Shown here: in pieces, positions 5,916 through 29,387 of the stretch
Layout of the letters: the number at the start of each line of letters is the position of its first letter
How positions within the stretch are numbered: the stretch's first letter is position 1
NCBI GenBank assembly: GCA_944388165.1
Contig: CALXHS010000078.1
Span: 1 to 40,672 of the forward strand
DNA from: an uncultured Gemmiger sp.
GTDB taxonomy: Bacteria > Bacillota > Clostridia > Oscillospirales > Ruminococcaceae
Direction: 5' to 3'
Length of the DNA: 40,672 nucleotides
Translations under genes and position numbers: made by a program
The notes under the pieces: generated by a model
The model's input: only the letters and a program-made list of their open reading frames with translations
What the model was told of the DNA's origin: nothing
Databases searched by the model: none

Positions 5916-7187
5916 TCACAGTTCCATTTTGGGGGCTTCGGGGGCGCGGGGCGTTTTCAGGGAGAAGGGATCTTCCCCGGCCAGGCCGTCGGCCTGCAGC
6001 ATCTTCTCCATCACGTCGATGTCTGCCGAAAGGTCCAGGGCGTCGGACTGGAACAGCTTGTCCAGCTGGTTCTCGAAGGCGGTGACCAGGGTGCCCATGG
6101 CCTGTTCGATGCGGCGCTTGGATTCAGAGATATTCTCCCCTTCAATGCCCTGGGCGTCCATCTCGGCGTAGGCTTCCAGCAGCTTGAGGGAGGTGGGCAG
6201 GTAATAATCCAGGAACTTGCGCATCCGGGGCAGCTTTTCGGGGTCGGATTCCGCCTGGGCAAAGATCTTGGCGGTCACCGCTTCCAGCCGGGCGATGCGG
6301 TCGCTCATCTCCTCGTCGGGGATGGCATCGTTCAGTTCCCGCAGGCGGGTCAGGGTCTTGTCATACTCGCTCTGGGGCTTGGCCGGTGCCTTGGGTTCGG
6401 CGGGCCGGGTTGCCTGCTGGGGTTTGGGGGCATCGCCCCGCACCACCAGGCAGCGGGTGCGCATGTCCAGGTAAGCGTCTTCCCCGAACAGGCCCTTGTC
6501 GATGCACTCTTCCAGGCGGCGGCAGCATTTGTCATAGCTGCAGGGGATGGCGTCGGCGATCTCCTTGATATACATATGGTCGGCGTCGCCCACGATCTTG
6601 TCGATCTTGCGGCGGATGCGCCGTCCGGTGCGCATGATGTTGGAACCGATGTACATGCCGATGCCCGCAAACAGGGGCAGGGACCCGGCGATCACATCCT
6701 CCACATACAGGTGCCAGTACTCCGCGCCGCCGTAGAAGATCAGCTCATGCAGGCTGCCCACGGTGGCCAGCAGGCCGATGGCGCCCACGATCACACCTGC
6801 CACCGCCAGCACGTTGATGCCGGCCTCGCTGTCCTGCCCGGCGGCAGGATGCGGGGTCGCCTTGGGGGGCTGGGGCGCGGGATTGCCCGGCTGCACATTG
6901 GAGGCTGTGGGCTGGGCGTAGATGCTGCGGGTCGGCGCGTATTTCCGGTTGGTACGGAAGGCGTCCGACCGGATCTGCCCGGTGCGCAGCAGGTGGTTGA
7001 GCACCAGCAGCACGATGGACACCGGCCACATGCCGAAGCAGAAGGTGAGGATGACCACCCAGATGGGGATCTGGAAGGGTGCATCACCCCGGCGATACTC
7101 CTGCCGCGGCGGGGGCGTGTACCGACGGTTGGACGGAGGGGACAAAGGACGGTGCTTATCCCGGTCGTCATAGTAAGGGCTGGGCAT
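5916..7187 (-). CDS. XpaC-like (5-bromo-4-chloroindolyl phosphate hydrolysis family) membrane protein
   Basis: 423 residues. A basic, proline-rich N-terminus is followed by a membrane segment (about residues 40-66), a linker, two further hydrophobic helices (about 125-165), a small wing-helix-like segment (MYIKEIADAIPCSYDKCCRR), and a helical C-terminal domain. The C-terminal stretch around RMRKFLDYYLPTSLKLLEAY is characteristic of the XpaC family. The family name comes from an indirect phenotype; TelA-type tellurite-resistance proteins are often its neighbours but none is seen here. It lies 35 bp downstream of the SGNH gene on the same strand, probably as an operon. The molecular role is unknown. 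Confidence 0.75.
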   Translation of the reverse strand: MPSPYYDDRDKHRPLSPPSNRRYTPPPRQEYRRGDAPFQIPIWVVILTFCFGMWPVSIVLLVLNHLLRTGQIRSDAFRTNRKYAPTRSIYAQPTASNVQPGNPAPQPPKATPHPAAGQDSEAGINVLAVAGVIVGAIGLLATVGSLHELIFYGGAEYWHLYVEDVIAGSLPLFAGIGMYIGSNIMRTGRRIRRKIDKIVGDADHMYIKEIADAIPCSYDKCCRRLEECIDKGLFGEDAYLDMRTRCLVVRGDAPKPQQATRPAEPKAPAKPQSEYDKTLTRLRELNDAIPDEEMSDRIARLEAVTAKIFAQAESDPEKLPRMRKFLDYYLPTSLKLLEAYAEMDAQGIEGENISESKRRIEQAMGTLVTAFENQLDKLFQSDALDLSADIDVMEKMLQADGLAGEDPFSLKTPRAPEAPKMEL

Positions 7188-20587: not shown

Positions 20588-20616
20588 TTGCTATTTGTGA
20601 AAATTCAGTGTACAAT
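20588..20616 (+). promoter_or_regulatory. Promoter of the zinc-ribbon/ATPase operon
   Basis: TTGCTA (20588-20593), 17 bp, TACAAT (20611-20616), 32 bp before the first gene. I see no further strong promoter or full terminator before 27.9 kb. Confidence 0.65.
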
Positions 20617-20648: not shown

Positions 20649-21854
20649 ATGTTTTGTCCCAACTGCGGCAAACCAAACAGCGAAGCCGATCGTTTCTGCA
20701 TGTACTGCGGCGCGGAACTGATTGACAACCAGAACTTCGGAGATGTCCCTCCCGCCCAGCAGGCGCGGGAACTGGCACTGGCTTTGTGGAAAAAGGCCAA
20801 AGCATTCTGCAAGGGGCACAAAAAAGCCGTGGCCGGTGCAGCGGCGGCCCTGGTGGTCATTGTAGGCTGCCTGTTCACGTGGGATGCTCTGTTTTCCCCC
20901 AAGAGCGTGGCGGTGACCTACTTCAAGGCTGTGATGAACGGCGATTCTTCCGCCGCCTATTCCTGCCTGGATATCGTGGAATCCCCCTTCACCACCAAGG
21001 ATAAGTTCAGCGATTACTGGAATACCTTCTGCACCCCCAAGGATCTGTACAACTACACCGTGAGCGAGAGATCCTCCGGTTCCAGCGAGGAAAAGCAGAT
21101 CGAACACACCTTCGATTTCCGTTATTACCTGCGGGGCGACAGCACCCCCTATACCATGTCGGTCACCGTGATCGAAGCCCAGGGGTTTGCTTCCTACAAG
21201 ATCCTGCCGGACTTCGTCATTACCGATTACAAGGTATCCGTGCCCCGGGATGTCACCGTGACCTTCGGCGGCGAGCCTCTGACCGATCCCTTCCAGGGCA
21301 ATCTGAGCGACGTGTACACTCTGCCCGCCGTTTTTGCCATGCCCTATGACATCGAACTGTCCGGTGCCATGTTTGAACCCGCCTCCGAAACCGTGTACCC
21401 CCAGCGGGGCGAAAGCTATACCTGCAGCGAGATGACCTTCAACCAGGAAACCGCCGACGCTGTGTTCTCCATGGCCTGCACCCAGATGGACCAGATGATC
21501 GCCTCCATTCTGGCTTACGGTGATTTCCCCGCCGACATCGCCGTCACCGCAGAAAGCAGCGCCCCGGATACTTATGAGCAGATGCGTTCGCACATGGTCG
21601 ACCCGGCGGAAGGCACCGGCTATTACAGCATCGACATCACCGACCATCGGGACGAAAGCGACCCGCAGGCCACCACCGCTGTGGTCACCTACACCTGCTC
21701 CATGGAACTGCCCTACAACTACACCCGCTTGTACAAGAGCTGGACGGGTGAGATCACGGCCAACGACGGTTCCAGTGAGACCTACGCCGAATTGACCTAC
21801 TGCTACCAGGACGGCCAGTGGAAACTTGACTCCATGTATGTCAGCAGCTTTTGA
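20649..21854 (+). CDS. Zinc-ribbon single-pass membrane protein with a large outer domain (TcaA-like architecture)
   Basis: 401 residues. Cytoplasmic zinc ribbon with C3-x2-C6 and C17-x2-C20, a basic helix, one membrane helix (about 60-78), then an outer domain of about 320 residues. The outer part starts with VAVTYFKAVMNGDSSAAYS, an NTF2-like opening also seen in TcaA-type proteins, and ends with a second beta-rich repeat (WTGEITANDGSSETYAELTY). GAGGAGG precedes the ATG. It is the first gene of a six-gene operon. The intracellular zinc ribbon with an extracellular domain suggests envelope signalling or scaffold work. No enzyme motif is seen. Confidence 0.75.
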   Translation: MFCPNCGKPNSEADRFCMYCGAELIDNQNFGDVPPAQQARELALALWKKAKAFCKGHKKAVAGAAAALVVIVGCLFTWDALFSPKSVAVTYFKAVMNGDSSAAYSCLDIVESPFTTKDKFSDYWNTFCTPKDLYNYTVSERSSGSSEEKQIEHTFDFRYYLRGDSTPYTMSVTVIEAQGFASYKILPDFVITDYKVSVPRDVTVTFGGEPLTDPFQGNLSDVYTLPAVFAMPYDIELSGAMFEPASETVYPQRGESYTCSEMTFNQETADAVFSMACTQMDQMIASILAYGDFPADIAVTAESSAPDTYEQMRSHMVDPAEGTGYYSIDITDHRDESDPQATTAVVTYTCSMELPYNYTRLYKSWTGEITANDGSSETYAELTYCYQDGQWKLDSMYVSSF

Positions 21855-21870
21855 TGGGAGGTAAAGAATC

Positions 21871-22845
21871 ATGCCTTATTGCACAAGATGCGGCAAGCCG
21901 ATCGCCGAAGGGGAGCGCTGCAGCTGCCAGAAGACCGGTCTTCACTTTGATTTTTCCGCCGGCAACAACTATGTGGAACAGTTTTTCGGCCTGCAGGATC
22001 AGGTCCGCGATCCCAAAGAACGCTATGAACGGGGTATGAAGATCATCCCCGACAACATTCAGCCCGACGAAGGGGAAAAGACCATCCGCCAGTATGACCT
22101 GTGCACCCTGCGTTCCCGCATCAAGTTCATGCGGGCCGAAGGCCGCCTGCAGGTCACCAACAAGCGGATCGTGTTCCGGGCCAAGGGCACTTCCCTCACC
22201 GGCCCCACCATCCTGCAGCAGGAGTTTTCCATCTCGGAACTCAGCGGGTTCCAGATCAACAAGAACACCCGGTTCAGCCTGCTGGACCTGCTCCTGGCCA
22301 TTCTCATCAGCGTGGCGCTGGGGTTTGTGGGCCAGTCCATCGCCGCGGCCATGCTCACCGGCAGTGCCCGGGCGGTTCTGGGCACCCTGGCCTATCTGCT
22401 GGGGCTGGCCGGTTTCGGCCTGACTTTGTTCCTGGGCCGCCACCATCTGAGCAAGCTGGCGCTGGCTGCCCTGGCCTTGCCGCTGCTGTTCGCCCCGGCC
22501 GCCGCCCTGGCTCTTACCGGCAGCGTGGGCCGTGCGTTTGCCGTGCTGCTCAACATTCCCACCCTGTTCTGCCTGGCTCAGCTGCTGGTCAGTGATTTCC
22601 TGTTCTCCTTCAAGCCGAACCTGGATTTCAAGGTCTGCTCCAAGATGGGCAGCGGCGTCATCCATCTGCGCTGCGAACCCGGCGGTTTTGCAGGCCTGGG
22701 CGCCATGATCAACGCCGCCTATGTGGGTTACAACGAAGTTCTGCCCGCTAAGGACACCGACCGCGCCATCACTGAGATCGGCGCCATTCTGTCCGATGTA
22801 CAGAAGCTGGGCGATTTCGCCATCGAAAAGTGGAAAGAAGACTGA
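21871..22845 (+). CDS. Zinc-ribbon membrane protein with PH/GRAM-like domain
   Basis: 324 residues. N-terminal zinc ribbon (C4-x2-C7, C17/C19), then a segment LQVTNKRIVFRAKGTS that is characteristic of bacterial PH/GRAM-like domains, followed by four hydrophobic helices (about 135-245) and a C-terminal soluble part starting FKVCSKMGSGVIHLRC. The start follows GGGAGG, 16 bp after the first gene. PH-like domains bind membranes or proteins, so it may tether a complex to the membrane. Function unknown. Confidence 0.72.
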   Translation: MPYCTRCGKPIAEGERCSCQKTGLHFDFSAGNNYVEQFFGLQDQVRDPKERYERGMKIIPDNIQPDEGEKTIRQYDLCTLRSRIKFMRAEGRLQVTNKRIVFRAKGTSLTGPTILQQEFSISELSGFQINKNTRFSLLDLLLAILISVALGFVGQSIAAAMLTGSARAVLGTLAYLLGLAGFGLTLFLGRHHLSKLALAALALPLLFAPAAALALTGSVGRAFAVLLNIPTLFCLAQLLVSDFLFSFKPNLDFKVCSKMGSGVIHLRCEPGGFAGLGAMINAAYVGYNEVLPAKDTDRAITEIGAILSDVQKLGDFAIEKWKED

Positions 22846-22854
22846 TGCTACACC

Positions 22855-22884
22855 AGGGGAGCCGCTGCGGCGGCCCCCTTCTTT
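22855..22884 (+). promoter_or_regulatory. Intra-operon GC hairpin, possible attenuator or processing site
   Basis: GGGGAGCCGC and GCGGCGGCCCC form a GC-rich stem with an imperfect base, followed by CTTCTTTTG. It is weaker than the other terminators here and may only reduce expression of downstream genes. Confidence 0.45.
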
Positions 22885-22905
22885 TGAAAGGCGGTGCTTT
22901 TCTGT

Positions 22906-23541
22906 ATGTCCCGCATCCTGACCCTATCCGTCCGCTGCGCTGTCTGCGGGCAGACTTCTGAGCAGACCGTAACAGCAAGCCGGTATGTGCCGGACCACGG
23001 CTTGGATGGAAAACCCGCCGGGAACGCCCCCGGAATGCCGGTGATGGAATGTTCCCACTGCCATCATGCCGCGGCAGACCTGGCCGACCCCGTTCCCGAA
23101 ACCGTGCGTACCTACGTATACAGCGACGGATACCGGCACTGGTATGCATCCCAGACCGACCCGATTCTCCGACAGCTGGAAGGCGCCGCCCTGATCGCAG
23201 CCCAGACCGATCTGGTGACCGCTGCCCGGTGGCACCTGGCTGCCGCCTGGTACTGCGAAGATCACGCCATGCCCGACCGGGCGGAACAGAACCGCCGCCA
23301 GTATCTGGAAATGACCCTGGCATCCGGCTGCAAACTCACGCCGGACGGCATGCTGCCCTATCTGGATTCTCTGCGCCTGCTGGGCCGTTTTGAGGAGGCC
23401 CGCGCCCTGGCCGGGCAGCTTCAGCCGGCCTTTGCGCGGCTGTTTGAGGAACAGGACATCCACCGCAAGATCCTGCAGCTGGAACTGCACCTGATCGAGT
23501 CCGGGGACGCCGCCCCTCATATGGTCAGCGAGGTGATGTGA
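22906..23541 (+). CDS. DUF2225-like cysteine-rich protein
   Basis: 211 residues. Two CxxC pairs near the N-terminus (VRCAVCGQ and MECSHCHH) would form a zinc site; the rest is helical with a TPR-like pattern (VTAARWHLAAAWYCEDHAMPDRAEQNRRQYLEM). This layout resembles DUF2225 proteins, of unknown function. I start at the ATG at 22906 with GAAAGGCGG upstream. It ends one base before the next start codon, so it is translationally linked to the HExxH protein and probably works with it. Confidence 0.72.
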   Translation: MSRILTLSVRCAVCGQTSEQTVTASRYVPDHGLDGKPAGNAPGMPVMECSHCHHAAADLADPVPETVRTYVYSDGYRHWYASQTDPILRQLEGAALIAAQTDLVTAARWHLAAAWYCEDHAMPDRAEQNRRQYLEMTLASGCKLTPDGMLPYLDSLRLLGRFEEARALAGQLQPAFARLFEEQDIHRKILQLELHLIESGDAAPHMVSEVM

Positions 23542-23542
23542 G

Positions 23543-25759
23543 ATGGGATTTTTCGACAATCTTTTCGGCCGCAACAATCCCAAGCCGTCAGCCCAGCCCA
23601 CCTTTTCGCCTTCCGCCACCGGGCCTTTTGTGTTCCCCGGACTGGATGAAAACTTCCAGACCATATACCCTACCATTCACAAATTCGGCCCCGGTATTCC
23701 CAATTATTCCACCTACAGCGACCGGCAGCTGGCCGAATGCTTTCTGCCCCAGAACTGGTCGGCGGAAGGCTTCGGTGACCGCCAGAAAGAAGCACTGCTG
23801 CAAGAGGTCAACAACCGTTTTGCAGCAGCCCATCATCTGCCTGCCATTCCCGTGCGGGTACGTTCAGATATGAACCCCAACGACATGGGAGCTTATGACC
23901 CAGCCAGCCGCAGCATTGAGCTGAACCCCAAGTATCTGGACAATCCCTTTGAAGCCCTGGACAGCGTCACCCACGAAAGCCAACATTATGTGGATGACAT
24001 GAACGTACGCAACGGCACCGGGGACACCCCTGAAAATCTGGCGGTTTATGCCTGTGAAAACAGTTCCGGCGGATACGGACAGCCCCCCGAGGGCGACAAA
24101 GAAACCAATCCTGCCTGGCAGGCAACCTGCAATTATTACAACGCCCAGGCACTGGAAGCCCACGCCAACAACGCAGGTTTTGCGGCGGTGGCCTCCCACC
24201 ATGACCTGTACAAAAACTGCCCGGAGTACAGCAAGTATCTGGAAGATCGGGCCAAATATTTCGACAACGTCAAAGGCAGCCTTACATCCGACCCCGAAAA
24301 ATGGAACGCCCTCGAACAGGCCCATATCCGCAATGCCACCGGCCAAACCCCGGAAACCATCAAGATGGCCTGCGCCGAACAGCAGCGGGGCACCGACGCC
24401 CAACAAAAAGCGATCCTGAACGCGGACGCCGTCAAAATGTTGCAGCACGACTGCGCCCGGCAGCAGGCTGCCGCACAGTCCCAGCCGGGAACCGCTCAGA
24501 ACCAGAACGCCGCGGCCAATTCTCCCGGACAGGACAATTCCTTGCACCGGACCGGTCCCCCTGAATCCGCCCCGGAAGACGGCAGCGAACGCATGCGCCG
24601 GGCTCCGGAAGCAGACAAGTCCGAGCCCGCCACCAGCAGCCGCAGCCAGCATGACGCCTTTGTGGAATCCTTGCGGGTGAAGCCCGGCCAAGGTGCCGGA
24701 CAGGGTGCCGGACAGGGTGCCGGGCAAAGCAGCGGTACCGCAACCGACGGTGCCCCCGAACCGCCCGAGCGGGAGAGGGAACGTACCCGGGATGACGGCG
24801 AAGAACGCATGCGCTGGGCACCGGAAGCAGACACGTCCGACACGCCCACCAACGCAGAAGAACAAAACACAGAAAACACCAAAGCACCGGAAACAGGACA
24901 AGCCCAACAGCCAGCCGCCGAAAATCAGGAAAGCACTTCCGAAAGTCAAACGGATGGCAAAGAAGAGGGGCAGCCCGCCCACACTGATAGGGAAGCCTCG
25001 GAGGATGGGGAGGACACCGCCCCTGACCGGGAAGAGGCCGCCCCCGAAGCCAGGGACAGTGAGGATACTTCCGAAAAATCCCGGGACCAGGGCAACGGCG
25101 AAAATCAGCCCGCCGAGCAGGCCCCCGAGGAAGAGGGGCAAACGCCCCGCGCCGCGGAGGAAGCCTCGGAGGATGGAGAAGAAGCTGCCCCCGACCGGGA
25201 AGAGAGCGCCCCCGAGGCAGGGGACAGCAAGGATGCGTCCGAAGAATCCCAGGATCAGGACAACGGCGAAAATCAGCCCGTCGAACAGACCCCTGAGGAA
25301 GAGGGCCAGACGCCCCACACCGAGGATGAAGCCCCGGAGAACGGAGAGGACGAAGCTCACGACCGGGAAGACAACGCCCCCACCCCGGAGGCGGAAGAAG
25401 GCATCCAGGATCATCCTCAGGAGGATGACCACGGCCCCAACGACGGCCCCGGGCAGACCGCCGAAGAAGAGGAAGGCATCCGGGAACCGGAGCCGGAACA
25501 GGAGAACGCCCACGGCGCCGAGGAAGCGGACGGCATCCGGGAAGAGCCTTCCGCTCCCCGGGAAAACGCCGCCGACGAGGACGAGGGCATCCGGGACCAG
25601 CCCCGGGAGGAAGCCCCGCAGGAAGAGGACGACGGCATCCGCAACGAGCCAGAAGCCGCCGATTCCGCCCAGCCCCAGGAAGATCAGTCCGAAGGCATCT
25701 CCGGTCAGGACACCGCCCCCGCCCCCAGCGAAGGGGCCGAACAGAGCATGGGCCAGTGA
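23543..25759 (+). CDS. HExxH zincin-like protein with a long acidic repeat tail
   Basis: 738 residues. The first 240 are folded: VTHESQHYVDD holds a HExxH zinc motif (H144, E145, H148) and QALEAHANNAG offers Glu205 as third ligand, as in gluzincins. The SRSIELNPKYL segment just before it resembles polymorphic-toxin-type peptidases. From about residue 300 on, the chain is disordered and very acidic: GQGAGQGAG repeats, two copies of ERMRxAPEAD, a 56-residue tandem repeat, and six copies of an (E/D)GI(R)xxP motif. No signal peptide or membrane helix. It lies directly before the ATPase gene (9 bp). Possible roles are a peptidase effector or an adaptor displaying docking motifs to the ATPase or zinc-ribbon proteins. 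Catalysis is inferred from the motif only. Confidence 0.7.
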   Translation: MGFFDNLFGRNNPKPSAQPTFSPSATGPFVFPGLDENFQTIYPTIHKFGPGIPNYSTYSDRQLAECFLPQNWSAEGFGDRQKEALLQEVNNRFAAAHHLPAIPVRVRSDMNPNDMGAYDPASRSIELNPKYLDNPFEALDSVTHESQHYVDDMNVRNGTGDTPENLAVYACENSSGGYGQPPEGDKETNPAWQATCNYYNAQALEAHANNAGFAAVASHHDLYKNCPEYSKYLEDRAKYFDNVKGSLTSDPEKWNALEQAHIRNATGQTPETIKMACAEQQRGTDAQQKAILNADAVKMLQHDCARQQAAAQSQPGTAQNQNAAANSPGQDNSLHRTGPPESAPEDGSERMRRAPEADKSEPATSSRSQHDAFVESLRVKPGQGAGQGAGQGAGQSSGTATDGAPEPPERERERTRDDGEERMRWAPEADTSDTPTNAEEQNTENTKAPETGQAQQPAAENQESTSESQTDGKEEGQPAHTDREASEDGEDTAPDREEAAPEARDSEDTSEKSRDQGNGENQPAEQAPEEEGQTPRAAEEASEDGEEAAPDREESAPEAGDSKDASEESQDQDNGENQPVEQTPEEEGQTPHTEDEAPENGEDEAHDREDNAPTPEAEEGIQDHPQEDDHGPNDGPGQTAEEEEGIREPEPEQENAHGAEEADGIREEPSAPRENAADEDEGIRDQPREEAPQEEDDGIRNEPEAADSAQPQEDQSEGISGQDTAPAPSEGAEQSMGQ
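24962..25399 (+). repeat. 168-bp tandem repeats within the zincin-like gene
   Basis: Units start at 24962, 25130 and 25298 (each at a GAA GAG GGN), a period of exactly 168 bp or 56 codons. The third unit is partial. The translated units share ASEDGEx2APDREE and NGENQPxEQxPEE. In-frame unit number could vary between strains. Confidence 0.85.
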
Positions 25760-25768
25760 GGTGAGACG

Positions 25769-27061
25769 ATGAAAAAAATTGAAATTTTCGACGGCTGCCA
25801 GCTGCACGAACAGCCCGTCCCCTACGCAACAGGGCCGGTAAAGTGCGTGCTGAACGGCGCCGGTCCCAACGAAGGGCAGAGCATCCTGCTGGACGAAAAC
25901 CTGCTCAGCCGCCACATCATGCTGCTGGGCGGCATCGGCACCGGCAAGACCAACACCATCAACATGCTGCTGCGCCAGCTTCTGGCCCGGGTGACGGCCG
26001 ATGACGTGGTCATCATCTTTGACTCCAAGGGAGATTTCTACAAGGAATTCTACACCCCGGGGGATGTGGTCATCAGCAACGACAGCCACGCCACCGGCCC
26101 CAACGGCCCGGATTTCTGGAACATCTACAACGAGATCGAGCGGGACGAGCACATGGAGGAAAATATCAACGAGATCGCCACCGCCATCTTCCGCAGCAAG
26201 ATCGAGCACTCCAACCAGCCCTTCTTCCCCAACGCCGGGCGGGACATCTTTTCCGCCGTACTGGGGCACTTCATCAAGAACGGCAACGAAGCCCTGTGCA
26301 ACAACCGGCATCTGCGGGAATTCCTGGACAAAAGTCCCACCTCCACCCTGCGCAAGATGCTGAACATGCGCCAGGAGACCCGCTCCATGGTCAGCTATAT
26401 CTACGACGATGCTTCCGGCCAGACCCAGGGCGTCATTTCCGAGATGCAGCAGGCCGTGCGGGAGATCTTCATCGGCAATTTCCGCAAGGAAGGCAGTCTT
26501 TCCCTGCGGCAGCTGGTGCGGGCCAAGGGCGGCCGCTGCGTGTTCATCGAATATGACCTGGGCATCGGTTCCACCCTGGCCCCCATTTACAGCCTGATGT
26601 TCGACCTGGCCATCAAGGAAGCCCTGTGCCGCCAGAAGAGTGAGGGCAGCGTCTATTTCATCACCGACGAGTTCAGCCTGCTGCCCAACCTCAAGCACAT
26701 CGACGACGCGGTGAACTTCGGCCGCAGCCTGGGCATCAAGTTCCTCATCGGCTACCAGAACATTGAACAGCTGGTGGATATCTACGGCCAGGCCCGGGCC
26801 AACAGCCTGCTTTCCGGCTTTCTGACCCAGATCTTCTTCCGCTGCAGCGACCCGGCCTCCCGCAAGTACATCCAGGACACCTTCGGCGTCAACCGCAAGA
26901 AGGAGATCTACATGGCTTCAGTGCAGGGACGCGGCATTGTGGAACAGATCCGCGACGCCCATGTGGTGGAGGACTGGGACATTTCCGGTCTGGGCCTGGG
27001 CGAAGCCATTGTCGGCCTGCCGGGGGCGGAGCCATTCCGCTTCCGCTTTGCCAAAGCATGA
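25769..27061 (+). CDS. Soluble VirD4/TraG- or HerA-like P-loop ATPase
   Basis: 430 residues. Walker A GGIGTGKT at 54-61; Walker B region VYFITDEFSLL; and YQNIEQLVDIYG, matching the QDxxQLxxxYG motif of type IV coupling proteins. These place it in the FtsK/HerA/VirD4 hexameric pump superfamily. It lacks the N-terminal membrane helices of true coupling proteins, and no relaxase, pilus or mating-pore gene is near. It could translocate DNA or protein for a non-conjugative machine made with its operon neighbours. AGGTGAGACG precedes the ATG. Confidence 0.8.
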   Translation: MKKIEIFDGCQLHEQPVPYATGPVKCVLNGAGPNEGQSILLDENLLSRHIMLLGGIGTGKTNTINMLLRQLLARVTADDVVIIFDSKGDFYKEFYTPGDVVISNDSHATGPNGPDFWNIYNEIERDEHMEENINEIATAIFRSKIEHSNQPFFPNAGRDIFSAVLGHFIKNGNEALCNNRHLREFLDKSPTSTLRKMLNMRQETRSMVSYIYDDASGQTQGVISEMQQAVREIFIGNFRKEGSLSLRQLVRAKGGRCVFIEYDLGIGSTLAPIYSLMFDLAIKEALCRQKSEGSVYFITDEFSLLPNLKHIDDAVNFGRSLGIKFLIGYQNIEQLVDIYGQARANSLLSGFLTQIFFRCSDPASRKYIQDTFGVNRKKEIYMASVQGRGIVEQIRDAHVVEDWDISGLGLGEAIVGLPGAEPFRFRFAKA

Positions 27062-27086
27062 CCCTATACAGAGAGAGGGAATCAAT

Positions 27087-27851
27087 ATGAAATGTGAAAA
27101 ATGCGGTTTTTATCTGGATAATTCCCAGGCCCGCTTCTGCCCCAAGTGTGGTGGCCGTCTGCTCCCGGATACCCCCGCCACCGAGCCGGTACGCCCCGCA
27201 CAGCCTGTGCGCCCCGCCGAGCCCGTACGCCCCGCTGAGCCCGTGCGCCCCGCCGAGCCCGTGCGCCCCGCCGAGCCCGTGCAGTCTGCGGAACCTGCCT
27301 ATTCTCCCAAACCGCCGCGGCGTTCTTCCCCGGACCCCCGCACGATCATCATTGCGGGTTGCGGCGCTGTTATCGTTGTTCTGCTGGTGGTTTTGGCGGT
27401 TGTTCTGACCCGGAAGCCTGCCGCGTCGGATACCCCCGCCTCCGCCGCCACAACCGTTCCCACAACAGCCCCCGCCGAAACCGTGGAGCCCACCCCCGCA
27501 CCGGCCACCACCACTCCTGCCCCGACCAGCGAGTCCACCTCTGCCCTGGAGATGCCCACCGTGAACGAGGAACCCGTGGAAGCCCCGGACGCCAACTATC
27601 CCGGCCTTGACGTGCAGCCCACCCACGTGTGGGATACGCAGAGCCAGACCCTTCTCCGCGTGGCGACCAACGCCGATAACCTGAACATGCGCAAAGGTCC
27701 CGGCACCGATTATGACCTGGTGAGCCAGGCTCCCCACGACGGGGTGGTCACCCGCATCGGCAAGCGCAGCGACAATGACGGCTGGATCCTCATCCTCTAC
27801 GACGGCGCCTACGGCTGGGTGTCGGCAGAGTACCTGGCACCCATCAACTAA
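27087..27851 (+). CDS. Zinc-ribbon, proline-repeat, membrane and SH3b-domain protein
   Basis: 254 residues. Zinc ribbon (C3, C6, C18, C21), then PVRPAE-type repeats (about 34-70), one membrane helix (86-108), a Thr/Pro-rich wall-spanning linker, and a C-terminal bacterial SH3 domain (about 190-254) with the LNMRKGPGTDYDLVSQ and GWILILYDGAYGWVSAEYL signatures. SH3b domains bind cell-wall peptides, so this protein probably links a cytoplasmic zinc-ribbon end to the peptidoglycan. It is the last gene of the operon, 25 bp after the ATPase. Confidence 0.8.
   Translation: MKCEKCGFYLDNSQARFCPKCGGRLLPDTPATEPVRPAQPVRPAEPVRPAEPVRPAEPVRPAEPVQSAEPAYSPKPPRRSSPDPRTIIIAGCGAVIVVLLVVLAVVLTRKPAASDTPASAATTVPTTAPAETVEPTPAPATTTPAPTSESTSALEMPTVNEEPVEAPDANYPGLDVQPTHVWDTQSQTLLRVATNADNLNMRKGPGTDYDLVSQAPHDGVVTRIGKRSDNDGWILILYDGAYGWVSAEYLAPIN
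27186..27293 (+). repeat. 18-bp tandem repeat encoding PVRPAE
   Basis: About five near-identical 18-bp units (CCCGTGCGCCCCGCCGAG and variants) are tandem within the zinc-ribbon/SH3b gene. Replication slippage would change the copy number in frame. Confidence 0.85.
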
Positions 27852-27907
27852 AGGGTGCCGCGCCGGGCACGGCATGCAGCAGTTTTTGACCCTATAAACC
27901 ACAAAAG

Positions 27908-27934
27908 AGAGCCCCCGCCGGGGGCTCTCCCTTT
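27908..27934 (+). terminator. Terminator of the six-gene operon
   Basis: AGAGCCCCC (27908-27916) pairs with GGGGGCTCT (27920-27928), followed by CCCTTTA; the T-run is short. Confidence 0.75.
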
Positions 27935-27962: not shown

Positions 27963-28634
27963 ATGCTGGAAAAGATGGATGACTTTTTCAACCGGCGGCT
28001 GGAAGGATACGAGGAACACCAGCTGCAGGCCATCGACCAGGCGCAGACCTTCTATCCCCTGACCGCCGCCTGTCTGCCCAAAGAAGAAGCCGCCCGCATC
28101 CTGGACCTTGGCTGCGGCACCGGCCTGGAACTGGGCTATTACTTCGAGCTGAACCCCACCGCCAGGGTAACGGGCATCGACCTGGCCCGGGACATGCTGA
28201 ACGCCCTGCGGGACAAGTTTCCCCACAAAGACCTGAACCTTGTGCAGGGGTCCTACTTTGATATTCCTCTGGGTCACGCCTGCTATGACGCGGCGGTATC
28301 GGTGGAATCCCTGCACCACTTTACCCAGGCCGAAAAAATCCCCTTATACCGCAAAGTCTTTGAAGCCCTGACGGCGGACGGATATTTTATCCTGACCGAC
28401 TATTTTGCCGAAAGCGATGCCCAGGAAGCCTTTTTCCGGCAGGAACTGCTGCGGCTGAAGGCGGAACAGGGGTTGCCGGACGGGGAGTTTTACCACTATG
28501 ACACGCCGCTGACGGTGGAACATGAGATCCAGGCCCTGGAACAGGCCGGGTTCGCCCGCGTGGAGGTGCTGGGACAGTGGAGCAATACCCGCCTGCTGAA
28601 AGCGGTCAAATCACCTTGCGCCGGGAACGAATAA
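27963..28634 (+). CDS. Class I SAM-dependent methyltransferase
   Basis: 223 residues. Motif I ILDLGCGTGLELGYYF binds S-adenosylmethionine; the acidic end of strand 2 is VTGIDLA; motif IV AAVSVESLHHF and FILTDYFA follow. It resembles small ubiquinone/menaquinone-type or metabolite methyltransferases, but the substrate cannot be read from the sequence. The ATG at 27963 follows GTGAGGT. It is convergent with the acetyltransferase gene, 11 bp apart. Confidence 0.85.
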   Translation: MLEKMDDFFNRRLEGYEEHQLQAIDQAQTFYPLTAACLPKEEAARILDLGCGTGLELGYYFELNPTARVTGIDLARDMLNALRDKFPHKDLNLVQGSYFDIPLGHACYDAAVSVESLHHFTQAEKIPLYRKVFEALTADGYFILTDYFAESDAQEAFFRQELLRLKAEQGLPDGEFYHYDTPLTVEHEIQALEQAGFARVEVLGQWSNTRLLKAVKSPCAGNE

Positions 28635-28645
28635 GACCTTCCCGG

Positions 28646-29284
28646 TCAGTTCTGCTCTTCGCAGTTGTTGAGCAGTTCCTGCAGTTCGTTCACCAGACGG
28701 CACACATGGAAGCCGTCACACACACCGTGGTGCACCTGCACCGCCAGAGGAAGCAGGACGCGGCCCCCCTCTTCATAGAAACGGCCCATGGTGAAAATGG
28801 GCGGCAGATAGTCATACCCGTTTTGCAGGTTCAGATTGAATCCCTCAAAGCTGGCCCAGGGCACCATGGACACCGGGAAGGTGTTGGCCGGGGTATCGGG
28901 GCGGGACATCAGCCCCGGACGGTCGCCGTAATCAGCCATATCCTTTTCCCAGGCGGCGCAGAAGGCCCGGTAATCCGGGGTATAGGCCGTCCACAGATTG
29001 GAAAAGGTCTCAGTCTGCTGATGGAAAATGGTGTAGCAGGGATGGACCAGGTCATAATAGCCGGGGTTCCCCTCCTCGTCCAGCGCCATGCGGAATTCCT
29101 GATAGCGGTTCACCACAGTGGACAGGTAAAACAGCATGGCAGGATACAGCTTTTCCCCCTGCCGCCGCAGCCGGGTGATATCCAGCTTGAAGGTGGCACT
29201 GTAGGTGCAGGGCACCTGGTTGAAATAATGATGGAAGTATTCCTCCCGCGGCCAGGTGCTGCGGTCGATTCTGGTAAAGGTCAT
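28646..29284 (-). CDS. Type A chloramphenicol O-acetyltransferase family protein
   Basis: 212 residues, the usual length for CAT. The hallmark HHGVCDGFH supplies catalytic His186 and structural Asp190 (equivalent to H195 and D199). VPWASFEGFNLN holds the oxyanion Ser145, and YFNQVPCTYSAT is the typical N-terminal strand. The family is a cytoplasmic trimer using acetyl-CoA. True resistance activity is likely but not certain, as chromosomal homologues include weak xenobiotic acetyltransferases. Start chosen at the ATG at 29284 with AGGAGGAAG just upstream. Base composition is like the neighbours, so recent transfer is not indicated. Confidence 0.88.
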   Translation of the reverse strand: MTFTRIDRSTWPREEYFHHYFNQVPCTYSATFKLDITRLRRQGEKLYPAMLFYLSTVVNRYQEFRMALDEEGNPGYYDLVHPCYTIFHQQTETFSNLWTAYTPDYRAFCAAWEKDMADYGDRPGLMSRPDTPANTFPVSMVPWASFEGFNLNLQNGYDYLPPIFTMGRFYEEGGRVLLPLAVQVHHGVCDGFHVCRLVNELQELLNNCEEQN

Positions 29285-29387
29285 GTTTCTTCCTCCTGTT
29301 GGGTCCCTTCTGCCGGTCAGCGGCAATGGCCCGGCTGCATTGTACCACGTCGGCCGCATTTTTCCACAGGTCTGTGGGAAACCCGCG

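What the first reader, a model, noticed from the sequence alone, without database searches (positions are those of the whole stretch)
20649..27851. Six-gene zinc-ribbon / zincin / VirD4-like ATPase operon: candidate undescribed system
Seen: six genes on one strand with gaps of 1-60 bp, one promoter and one terminator. Three have N-terminal CxxC zinc ribbons joined to membrane helices, one of which ends in a wall-binding SH3b domain and another carries a PH/GRAM-like segment. One is DUF2225-like, one a HExxH protein with a disordered acidic tail, and one a hexameric-pump-type ATPase without membrane helices. Known: VirD4/HerA ATPases power DNA or protein movement. Inferred: a membrane- and wall-anchored complex in which zinc ribbons gather partners around a soluble pump. 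No relaxase or pilus gene makes ordinary conjugation unlikely. I cannot match the set to a named system.
Basis: partly seen in the sequence, partly recalled or inferred. Interest (0 to 1): 0.82.

Follow-up and report, generated by a model that had tools for sequence, protein, structure and literature searches.

The report
Soluble VirD4-like motor with swappable effectors
A gut bacterium carries a small operon in which a soluble ATP-driven pump of the kind used by DNA-transfer machines is paired with a membrane anchor and a swappable, toxin-like protein, which may be a so far undescribed way for bacteria to deploy protein weapons.

Summary
In detail: six same-strand genes (20649-27851), gaps 1-60 bp. 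But the six are not the unit. Relatives show a three-gene core: g2 (zinc ribbon; PH-like fold split by four membrane helices), a variable gene directly before the ATPase (g4 here), and g5, a TrwB/VirD4-family ATPase without membrane helices. g2 was found in 16 of 24 g5-positive genomes and 0 of 56 g5-negative ones. The variable protein has exchangeable heads (HExxH here, a GH-E toxin nuclease in L017) and a low-complexity, often acidic tail with short motifs or an aromatic end tag. Against a close relative (g5 77% identical) the head and the g3-slot gene are unrelated; one slot gene weakly resembles an immunity factor. The window's draft genome gave no other coupling protein, VirB4-type match or full-length EssC. 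Best reading: an undescribed polymorphic-effector system whose soluble motor, docked on a membrane anchor, reads the effector's tail, probably for export; self-directed use is the main rival. Toxicity, tail recognition and export are untested.

The parts
20588..20616 (+). weak sigma-70-like promoter site before g1 (TTGCTA-17-TACAAT)
   Evidence: 2 found against 1.8 expected by chance, so suggestive only
20649..21854 (+). g1: zinc ribbon, one membrane helix, then a MecA_N/NTF2-like domain presumed outside; accessory, relatives in six other loci
21871..22845 (+). g2 (core): N-terminal zinc ribbon, PH-like fold interrupted by four membrane helices, conserved C-terminal helix; proposed membrane dock of the ATPase
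   Evidence: docking role inferred
22906..23541 (+). g3: 211 aa with two CxxC pairs, in the slot between g2 and the effector; proposed partner or immunity protein of g4
   Evidence: role inferred from the slot only
23543..25759 (+). g4 (core slot): effector-like protein, HExxH head plus long acidic tail
23972..23986 (+). HESQH (HExxH) motif of g4; the conserved Glu codon at 24155-24157 is a candidate third zinc ligand
   Evidence: alignment; zincin role inferred
25307..25756 (+). last 150 residues of g4: acidic tail with four [DE][DEN]G-hydrophobic motifs (EEGI, EEGI, DEGI, DDGI)
25769..27061 (+). g5 (core): TrwB/VirD4-family ATPase without membrane helices
25928..25951 (+). Walker A of g5 (GGIGTGKT)
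   Evidence: G54, I56, G57, G59, K60 invariant in 14 of 14 aligned sequences
26651..26674 (+). Walker B region of g5 (VYFITDEF)
   Evidence: D300, E301, F302 invariant in 14 of 14
27084..27851 (+). g6: zinc-ribbon-like N-terminus, one membrane helix, SH3b domain presumed outside; accessory, no clear relative in the loci held
27903..27933 (.). 14-pair hairpin after g6, possible terminator (scored on the - strand only)

Best explanation
A modular polymorphic-effector system with its own soluble VirD4/TrwB-type motor. Core: g2 (membrane dock), effector gene (g4 in the window), g5 (motor). Proposed working: g5 forms a hexameric ring as TrwB does (inferred from the family), docks on the membrane through g2, binds the effector's tail or end tag, and pulls or unfolds the effector so that it is passed across the membrane. 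The head is exchangeable (HExxH here, nuclease elsewhere), and the gene in the g3 slot, where there is one, protects the producer. Zinc-ribbon/membrane/wall-binding proteins (g1, g6) and, in a relative, a wall amidase would help passage or placement at the wall. Shown: linked core, variable heads, tail motifs, intact ATPase motifs, no coupling protein besides g5 detected in the window's draft genome. Inferred: ring form, toxicity, tail recognition, immunity, export and its direction.
For: Core linkage: g2 in 16 of 24 g5-positive genomes, 0 of 56 g5-negative; in 15 of the 16 on g5's contig and within about 3 kb, in the sixteenth (G1289) both lie near contig ends. g2 with g5 also in Chitinophagaceae (L021), a Paenibacillus plasmid (L030, E 1.9e-25, no effector gene between) and a Curtobacterium plasmid (L031, E 3.4e-8). 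Exchangeable slot: window against Gemmiger G1289, g5 77%, g2 43%, g1 34% identical, but at E<=10 g4 matched that effector only in the tail (E 2.8) and g3 did not match the slot gene; HExxH heads need three changes on the g5 tree. Toxin link: the L017 head is a GH-E nuclease (2.3e-14, over cut-off; [quoted passage not shown] the L012 slot gene resembles IFS, an immunity factor (4.6e-6; 27.3 bits, below the cut-off of 30). Tail: 20 [DE][DEN]G-hydrophobic motifs in 17 tails against 1.7 expected; aromatics 31 of 204 in the last 12 positions against 48 of 1700 in the 100 before (motif chosen after seeing the tails). YDYYNxY ends the effector in 4 genomes, with no other exact match in those four. 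16 of 17 effectors stay under the hydrophobicity threshold used for a membrane or signal segment (L013 exceeds it, L031 is borderline). Own genome: no coupling protein besides g5, no AAA_10, only an FtsK-like EssC match. Wall link: Amidase_3 and ZnR-YARHG genes in L015, NlpC/P60 near L031. Proposed precedent for a VirD4-like protein with a separate membrane anchor: TraJ/TraI of pIP501 (PMC13037476, passage).
Against: Only 1 of 14 effectors scanned with Pfam (of 17) passes a toxin-family cut-off; L016 and L021 are largely low complexity. A slot gene was seen by eye in 6 of 17 loci (window, L012, L013, L015, L031, G1289), and the GH-E effector L017 has none. No channel gene is evident. Motifs are absent from 9 of 17 tails, 14 of the 20 come from three proteins, and related loci are not independent. 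L015, L016, L017, L021, G1289 and the window have no aromatic residue in the last 12. With one mismatch allowed the tag pattern is no more frequent than its reversed control (13 against 13 in 12 genomes). The L031 effector frame overlaps a gene annotated on the other strand. L014 has no effector between g2 and g5. AAA_10 is an insensitive test (see full report). The g4 head fold could not be checked against the PDB (server busy). Distant g5 relatives sit among vWA and kinase-like genes (partly by eye), which points to other roles.
Confidence: 0.43

Rival explanations
1. Cell-autonomous conflict or suicide system: the effector stays inside, held by the motor and g3, and is released on phage attack or envelope stress sensed by g1/g2/g6.
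For: No channel gene; distant g5 relatives lie with vWA-, phosphatase- and kinase-like genes (L037, L043 by eye; vWA in L034 by Pfam), and TerY-P-like modules are linked to defence (PMC11090510, passages); PADLOC mad8 hit to g5 (6.3e-16) and a PD-T4-6 hit to the middle of g6 (1.4e-5); patchy distribution.
Against: No kinase, phosphatase or vWA gene in the window's operon; an IFS-like slot gene and wall-acting genes fit export better; no defence-family hit in 10 effector or slot proteins scanned.
Confidence: 0.28
2. Non-toxic envelope or stress machine: the motor handles a variable structural or enzymatic client (remodelling, wall quality control), without killing.
For: Most clients scanned have no toxin-family match over cut-off (13 of 14); the window head is protease-like; wall-binding and MecA_N-like partners.
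Against: Head and slot swapping between close relatives and a GH-E toxin domain are hard to explain for a housekeeping client.
Confidence: 0.2
3. DNA mobilisation: g5 is the coupling protein of a conjugative or mobilisable element.
For: PF10412/TrwB family; a distant haloarchaeal relative follows a gene annotated relaxase.
Against: No membrane segment in 23 of 24 g5 homologues; no VirB4 or relaxase recognised in the operon; no AAA_10 match and no other coupling protein in the own draft genome. A relaxase was not searched for genome-wide.
Confidence: 0.06
4. Unrelated neighbours that only look like an operon.
For: g3 and g6 are poorly conserved.
Against: Core linkage in Clostridia, Bacteroidota, Bacilli and Actinomycetota.
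Confidence: 0.03

Closest known systems
Bacteria-killing type IV secretion (X-T4SS; VirD4 plus XVIPCD effectors and immunity proteins)
   Same: VirD4-family ATPase; catalytic head at the N-terminus and a tail signal at the C-terminus; candidate immunity genes in part of the loci
   Different: No VirB genes recognised beside it; motor has no membrane helices; signal is a short motif or tag, not a ~120-residue domain (PMC6536674, passages)
Type VII secretion (EssC with LXG/WXG toxins)
   Same: Monoderm hosts; FtsK/HerA-superfamily pump; polymorphic toxins
   Different: TrwB-type motor, not EssC; toxin-like domain at the other end; full-length EssC over cut-off in 3 of 22 genomes (a fourth just below) and not in the window's own
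pIP501 TraJ/TraI (VirD4-like protein with a proposed separate membrane anchor)
   Same: Coupling-type ATPase thought to be anchored by a partner (PMC13037476, passage)
   Different: Part of a full conjugation system
TerY-P and related stress/conflict systems
   Same: Distant g5 homologues near vWA/kinase-like genes (by eye)
   Different: No such genes in the window's operon
TcaA/YvbJ-type zinc-ribbon membrane proteins (recalled, no call)
   Same: g1 architecture: ribbon, helix, NTF2-like domain
   Different: Here linked to a PH-like protein and an ATPase

Membership tests
Type IV coupling proteins (VirD4/TraD/TrwB) | TrwB-type motor domain with Walker A and B | tested here: met
   PF10412 1.1e-49; motif residues invariant in 14 of 14; TrwB structures matched at 2.1e-16
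Type IV coupling proteins (VirD4/TraD/TrwB) | N-terminal membrane domain | tested here: not met
   No hydrophobic segment in 23 of 24 g5 homologues; an N-terminal one in TraD, 3 of 3 haloarchaeal proteins and 6 of 8 coupling proteins from g5-positive genomes
Type IV secretion system | VirB4-type ATPase and channel genes | tested here: inconclusive
   No such family among the six proteins; no AAA_10 match in the own genome and in 16 of 22, but AAA_10 found only 5 of the 8 genomes with a coupling protein over cut-off; other VirB genes not searched
Bacteria-killing T4SS effectors (X-Tfe) | C-terminal region read by the VirD4 protein | tested here: inconclusive
   Recurring tail motifs and tags; binding not testable here
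Polymorphic toxin systems | Exchangeable toxin domain on a shared trafficking part | tested here: inconclusive
   Heads exchange; one certain toxin family, GH-E; tail only loosely conserved
Polymorphic toxin systems | Adjacent cognate immunity gene | tested here: inconclusive
   IFS-like gene in L012 below cut-off; slot genes by eye in 6 of 17 loci
Type VII secretion | EssC/EccC motor | tested here: not met
   Own genome has only an FtsK-like match (129 bits against cut-off 778); WXG100 genes not searched
MADS defence (mad8) | Presence of the other Mad proteins | tested here: not met
   g5 hits mad8 (6.3e-16) but none of the other five operon proteins hits a Mad model at E<=0.1; rest of the genome not searched
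PH-like domains (g2) | Seven-stranded barrel capped by a helix | tested here: inconclusive
   Model has strands split by four helices plus a C-terminal helix; several top PDB matches are PH domains, best E 0.039
Zincin metallopeptidases (g4 head) | HExxH helix with a third ligand | tested here: inconclusive
   HExxH and a downstream Glu invariant in 4 of 4; HExxH lies in a helix of the model, but 113 of 271 residues have pLDDT under 50 (mean 64.8); no fold search possible

The most novel reading that the evidence does not exclude
A new class of protein-delivery system, mainly in monoderm bacteria: a soluble TrwB/VirD4-type ring docked on a split PH/zinc-ribbon membrane protein, which reads short acidic-glycine-hydrophobic motifs or an aromatic end tag on toxin-headed effectors and moves them out without any type IV or type VII channel.
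Probability: 0.3. Interest if true: 0.9.

Novelty: new variant of a known kind. Interest (0 to 1): 0.7.

Why it matters
[quoted passage not shown] A VirD4-family motor with swappable, partly toxin-headed clients in monoderm gut bacteria would add a trafficking or control mode and give a marker pair (g2 plus g5) for finding new effector families. It also makes directly testable how a coupling-type ATPase recognises protein clients.

Tried and rejected
Conjugation: disfavoured by the missing membrane domain and by searches of the own genome. Phage origin: no match in 50,697 phage records; in the viral contig scan 38 stretches matched a pattern and none encoded a relative. MADS defence: only mad8-like similarity. 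DUF2225 for g3: no Pfam support. Other tagged clients: 6 exact YDYYNxY matches in 12 genomes, 4 of them effector ends; the other two lie inside a frame or in a frame that looks spurious. PDB sequence searches found nothing useful for g2, the g4 head or the IFS-like gene. PHROGs and NCBIfam gave no informative hit to the effectors and slot genes scanned. Searches of plasmids with g2, the g4 head and the L018 head, and of phages with the L018 head: no match. Ten paper searches (five returned nothing) and passages of PMC3482391, PMC6536674, PMC7159879, PMC11090510, PMC12419801, PMC13037476 and the abstract and outline of PMC10933484 showed no description of such a set; the library holds open-licence PMC papers only.

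Rows dropped: the 17-effector tests leave out L014 (no effector between g2 and g5), truncated or remnant loci (L020, L022, L038) and distant or unclear loci (L019, L030, L034-L037, L043). For G1289 the tail came from L008 and the head from L075, read apart. Three of the 17 (L013, L015, L016) were not scanned with Pfam. In the first tree four coupling proteins (L093, L094, L096, L097) fell out because the g5 profile found no region in them. L041 and L044 duplicate L013 and L022; G1281 is the genome of G958 again and was left out.
Full report
What is there. The six ORFs are real and tightly spaced. g1: zinc ribbon, membrane helix, MecA_N-like domain. g2: zinc ribbon and four membrane helices, no Pfam family. 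g3: 211 aa with two CxxC pairs, no Pfam family. g4: 738 aa, HExxH head and long acidic tail, no Pfam family. g5: TrwB-type ATPase. g6: ribbon-like N-terminus, helix, SH3b. NCBIfam gives g5 only below-cut-off matches, best TraD_Ftype. The predicted g2 model has five strands, four long helices, further strands and a C-terminal helix: a PH-like fold split by a membrane insert. Several of its top PDB matches are PH domains, all weak.

Relatives. g5 is rare and patchy: 5 of 197 genomes of the family (single sequence, E<=1e-40), and, by profile at E<=1e-80, 3 of 345 of the order, 7 of 391 of the class and 1 of 398 of the phylum sample. These samples overlap, and each count includes the window's own genome. 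In a Bacteroidota sample only the centre genome itself matched (1 of 198, E<=1e-70). A pattern-based scan of genome contigs gave 15 loci, a lower bound by design. Close relatives are Faecalibacterium UBA1762 (79%) and Gemmiger (77%), so the window is probably from that group (inference). Two Paenibacillus and two Curtobacterium plasmids carry relatives. All 13 genomes checked through loci have a single g5 at E<=1e-60.

The core. In most loci g2 lies within a few kb of g5, with a variable gene directly before g5. The g2 profile was sought in 80 genomes: 16 of 24 g5-positive ones have it at E<=1e-10 and 0 of 56 g5-negative ones ('negative' rests, with different thresholds). Of the eight positives without it, G044, G976 and G1287 are remnants or truncated contigs and G056, G136, G1092, G1219 and G1286 have distant or divergent surroundings. 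One genome (G1284) has an extra g1-g2 pair without g5 beside a large methylase-like gene (L076). Across the 105 loci held, g1 relatives occur in six other loci (L010, L012, L015, L039, L075, L076), g3 only in L015, and g6 has at best a weak match in L039 (E 8e-4) (duplicate loci merged).

The variable slot. Window, L015, L040 and L045 share an HExxH head; the pairs with L040 and L045 are distant, and with the window head alone only L015 and its copies are found at E<=1e-3. The window's close relative G1289 has another head and another slot gene, while g1, g2 and g5 are conserved. On the g5 tree the HExxH label needs three changes; 86 of 500 label shuffles do as well, so it is not clearly clustered; some branches are long. 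L010 and L011 share a head (1e-12); L012, L039 and G1289 share at most a short stretch (hhalign E 0.0035-0.054). L017 carries a GH-E nuclease over the Pfam cut-off. The L012 slot gene matches IFS at 4.6e-6, below the curated cut-off, and finds no PDB relative by sequence. Of 17 effectors 14 were scanned with Pfam and one passes a toxin cut-off. The HNH-like look of L034 and the ParB-like look of L018 are my recall; no search confirmed them.

The tail. In 17 effectors the last 150 residues (80 for short ones) hold 20 [DE][DEN]G-hydrophobic motifs against 1.7 expected from shuffles. I chose the motif after seeing the tails; 14 of the 20 come from the window, G1289 and L045, and 9 of 17 have none. 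The acidic share of the tails runs from 0.04 (L017) to 0.50 (L009). Aromatic residues are enriched in the last 12 positions (31 of 204 against 48 of 1700 before); related loci are not independent. At least two aromatics in the last seven: 8 of 16 effectors against 53 of 274 other ORFs of 200 aa or more in the same loci, which include spurious ORFs. YDYYNxY ends the effectors of L009, L010, L012 and L018 and has no other exact match in those four genomes; with one mismatch the pattern is as frequent as its reversed control (13 and 13 in 12 genomes). The window, L015 and G1289 have no aromatic end but DEGI-like repeats. The L031 effector frame overlaps a gene annotated on the opposite strand, so that row is doubtful.

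Does it use a known machine? The own genome gave no AAA_10 (VirB4-type) match, no CD1115-type coupling protein and only an FtsK-like match to EssC. Among 22 positive genomes, 13 match the coupling-protein model at E<=1e-20, but in G1278 and G1285 that match is g5 itself, so 11 have none besides g5. 16 of 22 have no AAA_10 match. AAA_10 is insensitive: of the 8 genomes with a coupling protein over the cut-off it found 5 (missing G056, G473, G1283). 10 of 22, the window's genome among them, show neither. 3 of 22 have full-length EssC over the cut-off, a fourth just below. The genomes are drafts, so absence is not proof. g5 differs from coupling proteins by having no membrane helix (23 of 24).

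Interpretation. A VirD4-family motor, a client with exchangeable head and recognisable tail, a slot gene that once resembles an immunity factor, and wall-acting neighbours in some loci (Amidase_3 and YARHG in L015, NlpC/P60 near L031) together resemble the logic of bacteria-killing T4SS without the T4SS. X-Tfes carry a C-terminal XVIPCD that binds VirD4 (PMC6536674, passages), and their immunity proteins guard against self-poisoning (PMC10933484, abstract). A separate anchor for a VirD4-like protein has been proposed for pIP501 TraJ/TraI (PMC13037476, passage). I favour export of polymorphic effectors (0.43) over self-directed use (0.28) and a non-toxic envelope role (0.2). The first figure was lowered slightly on recheck because AAA_10 proved a weak test and one effector row is doubtful. 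That the window's g4 is toxic, that g3 protects, and that anything crosses the membrane are inferences.

Verdict. Novelty is set at new variant of a known kind because function is inferred by analogy; the bolder reading is given as the novel case.

Noticed in passing
L076 3429-8698 (G1284:C501): A second g1-g2 pair without g5, directly before a 1008-aa protein that looks like a DNA methylase/restriction enzyme by eye; the zinc-ribbon/PH pair may serve other systems.
   Followed up: partly
window 28649-29359 (-): Chloramphenicol acetyltransferase family gene (PF00302, 5.5e-78) close to the operon; whether it confers resistance was not examined.
   Followed up: no
window 27963-28634 (+): Class I methyltransferase gene after the hairpin; probably separate.
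   Followed up: no
window 23864-26698 (-): 944-aa open frame antisense to g4 and g5, probably a by-product of the G+C-rich repeats and not a gene.
   Followed up: no
L014 4894-5238 and L038 8113-8451: Related small genes after g5 that look like Nif11-type leader peptides (recall), in two genomes, one of which has only a g5 remnant.
   Followed up: no
L034 1442-7677 (G136): Series of proteins with a similar N-terminal part before a g5 relative; the last one has a vWA domain.
   Followed up: no
L019 839-10492: g5 relative followed by a second ATPase-like gene, near two Hsp70-like genes (by eye).
   Followed up: no
window 5916-7187 (-): Protein of the PF10112 family (6.3e-20), a family with XpaC (recall).
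   Followed up: no
L032 6883-9170 and L033 7365-9092: Haloarchaeal plasmid relatives of g5 with membrane helices; in L032 the gene follows one annotated relaxase.
   Followed up: no
L030 14502-16877: Paenibacillus plasmid: 791-aa protein with a repetitive acidic tail, the third gene after g5; possibly the displaced effector of that locus.
   Followed up: no
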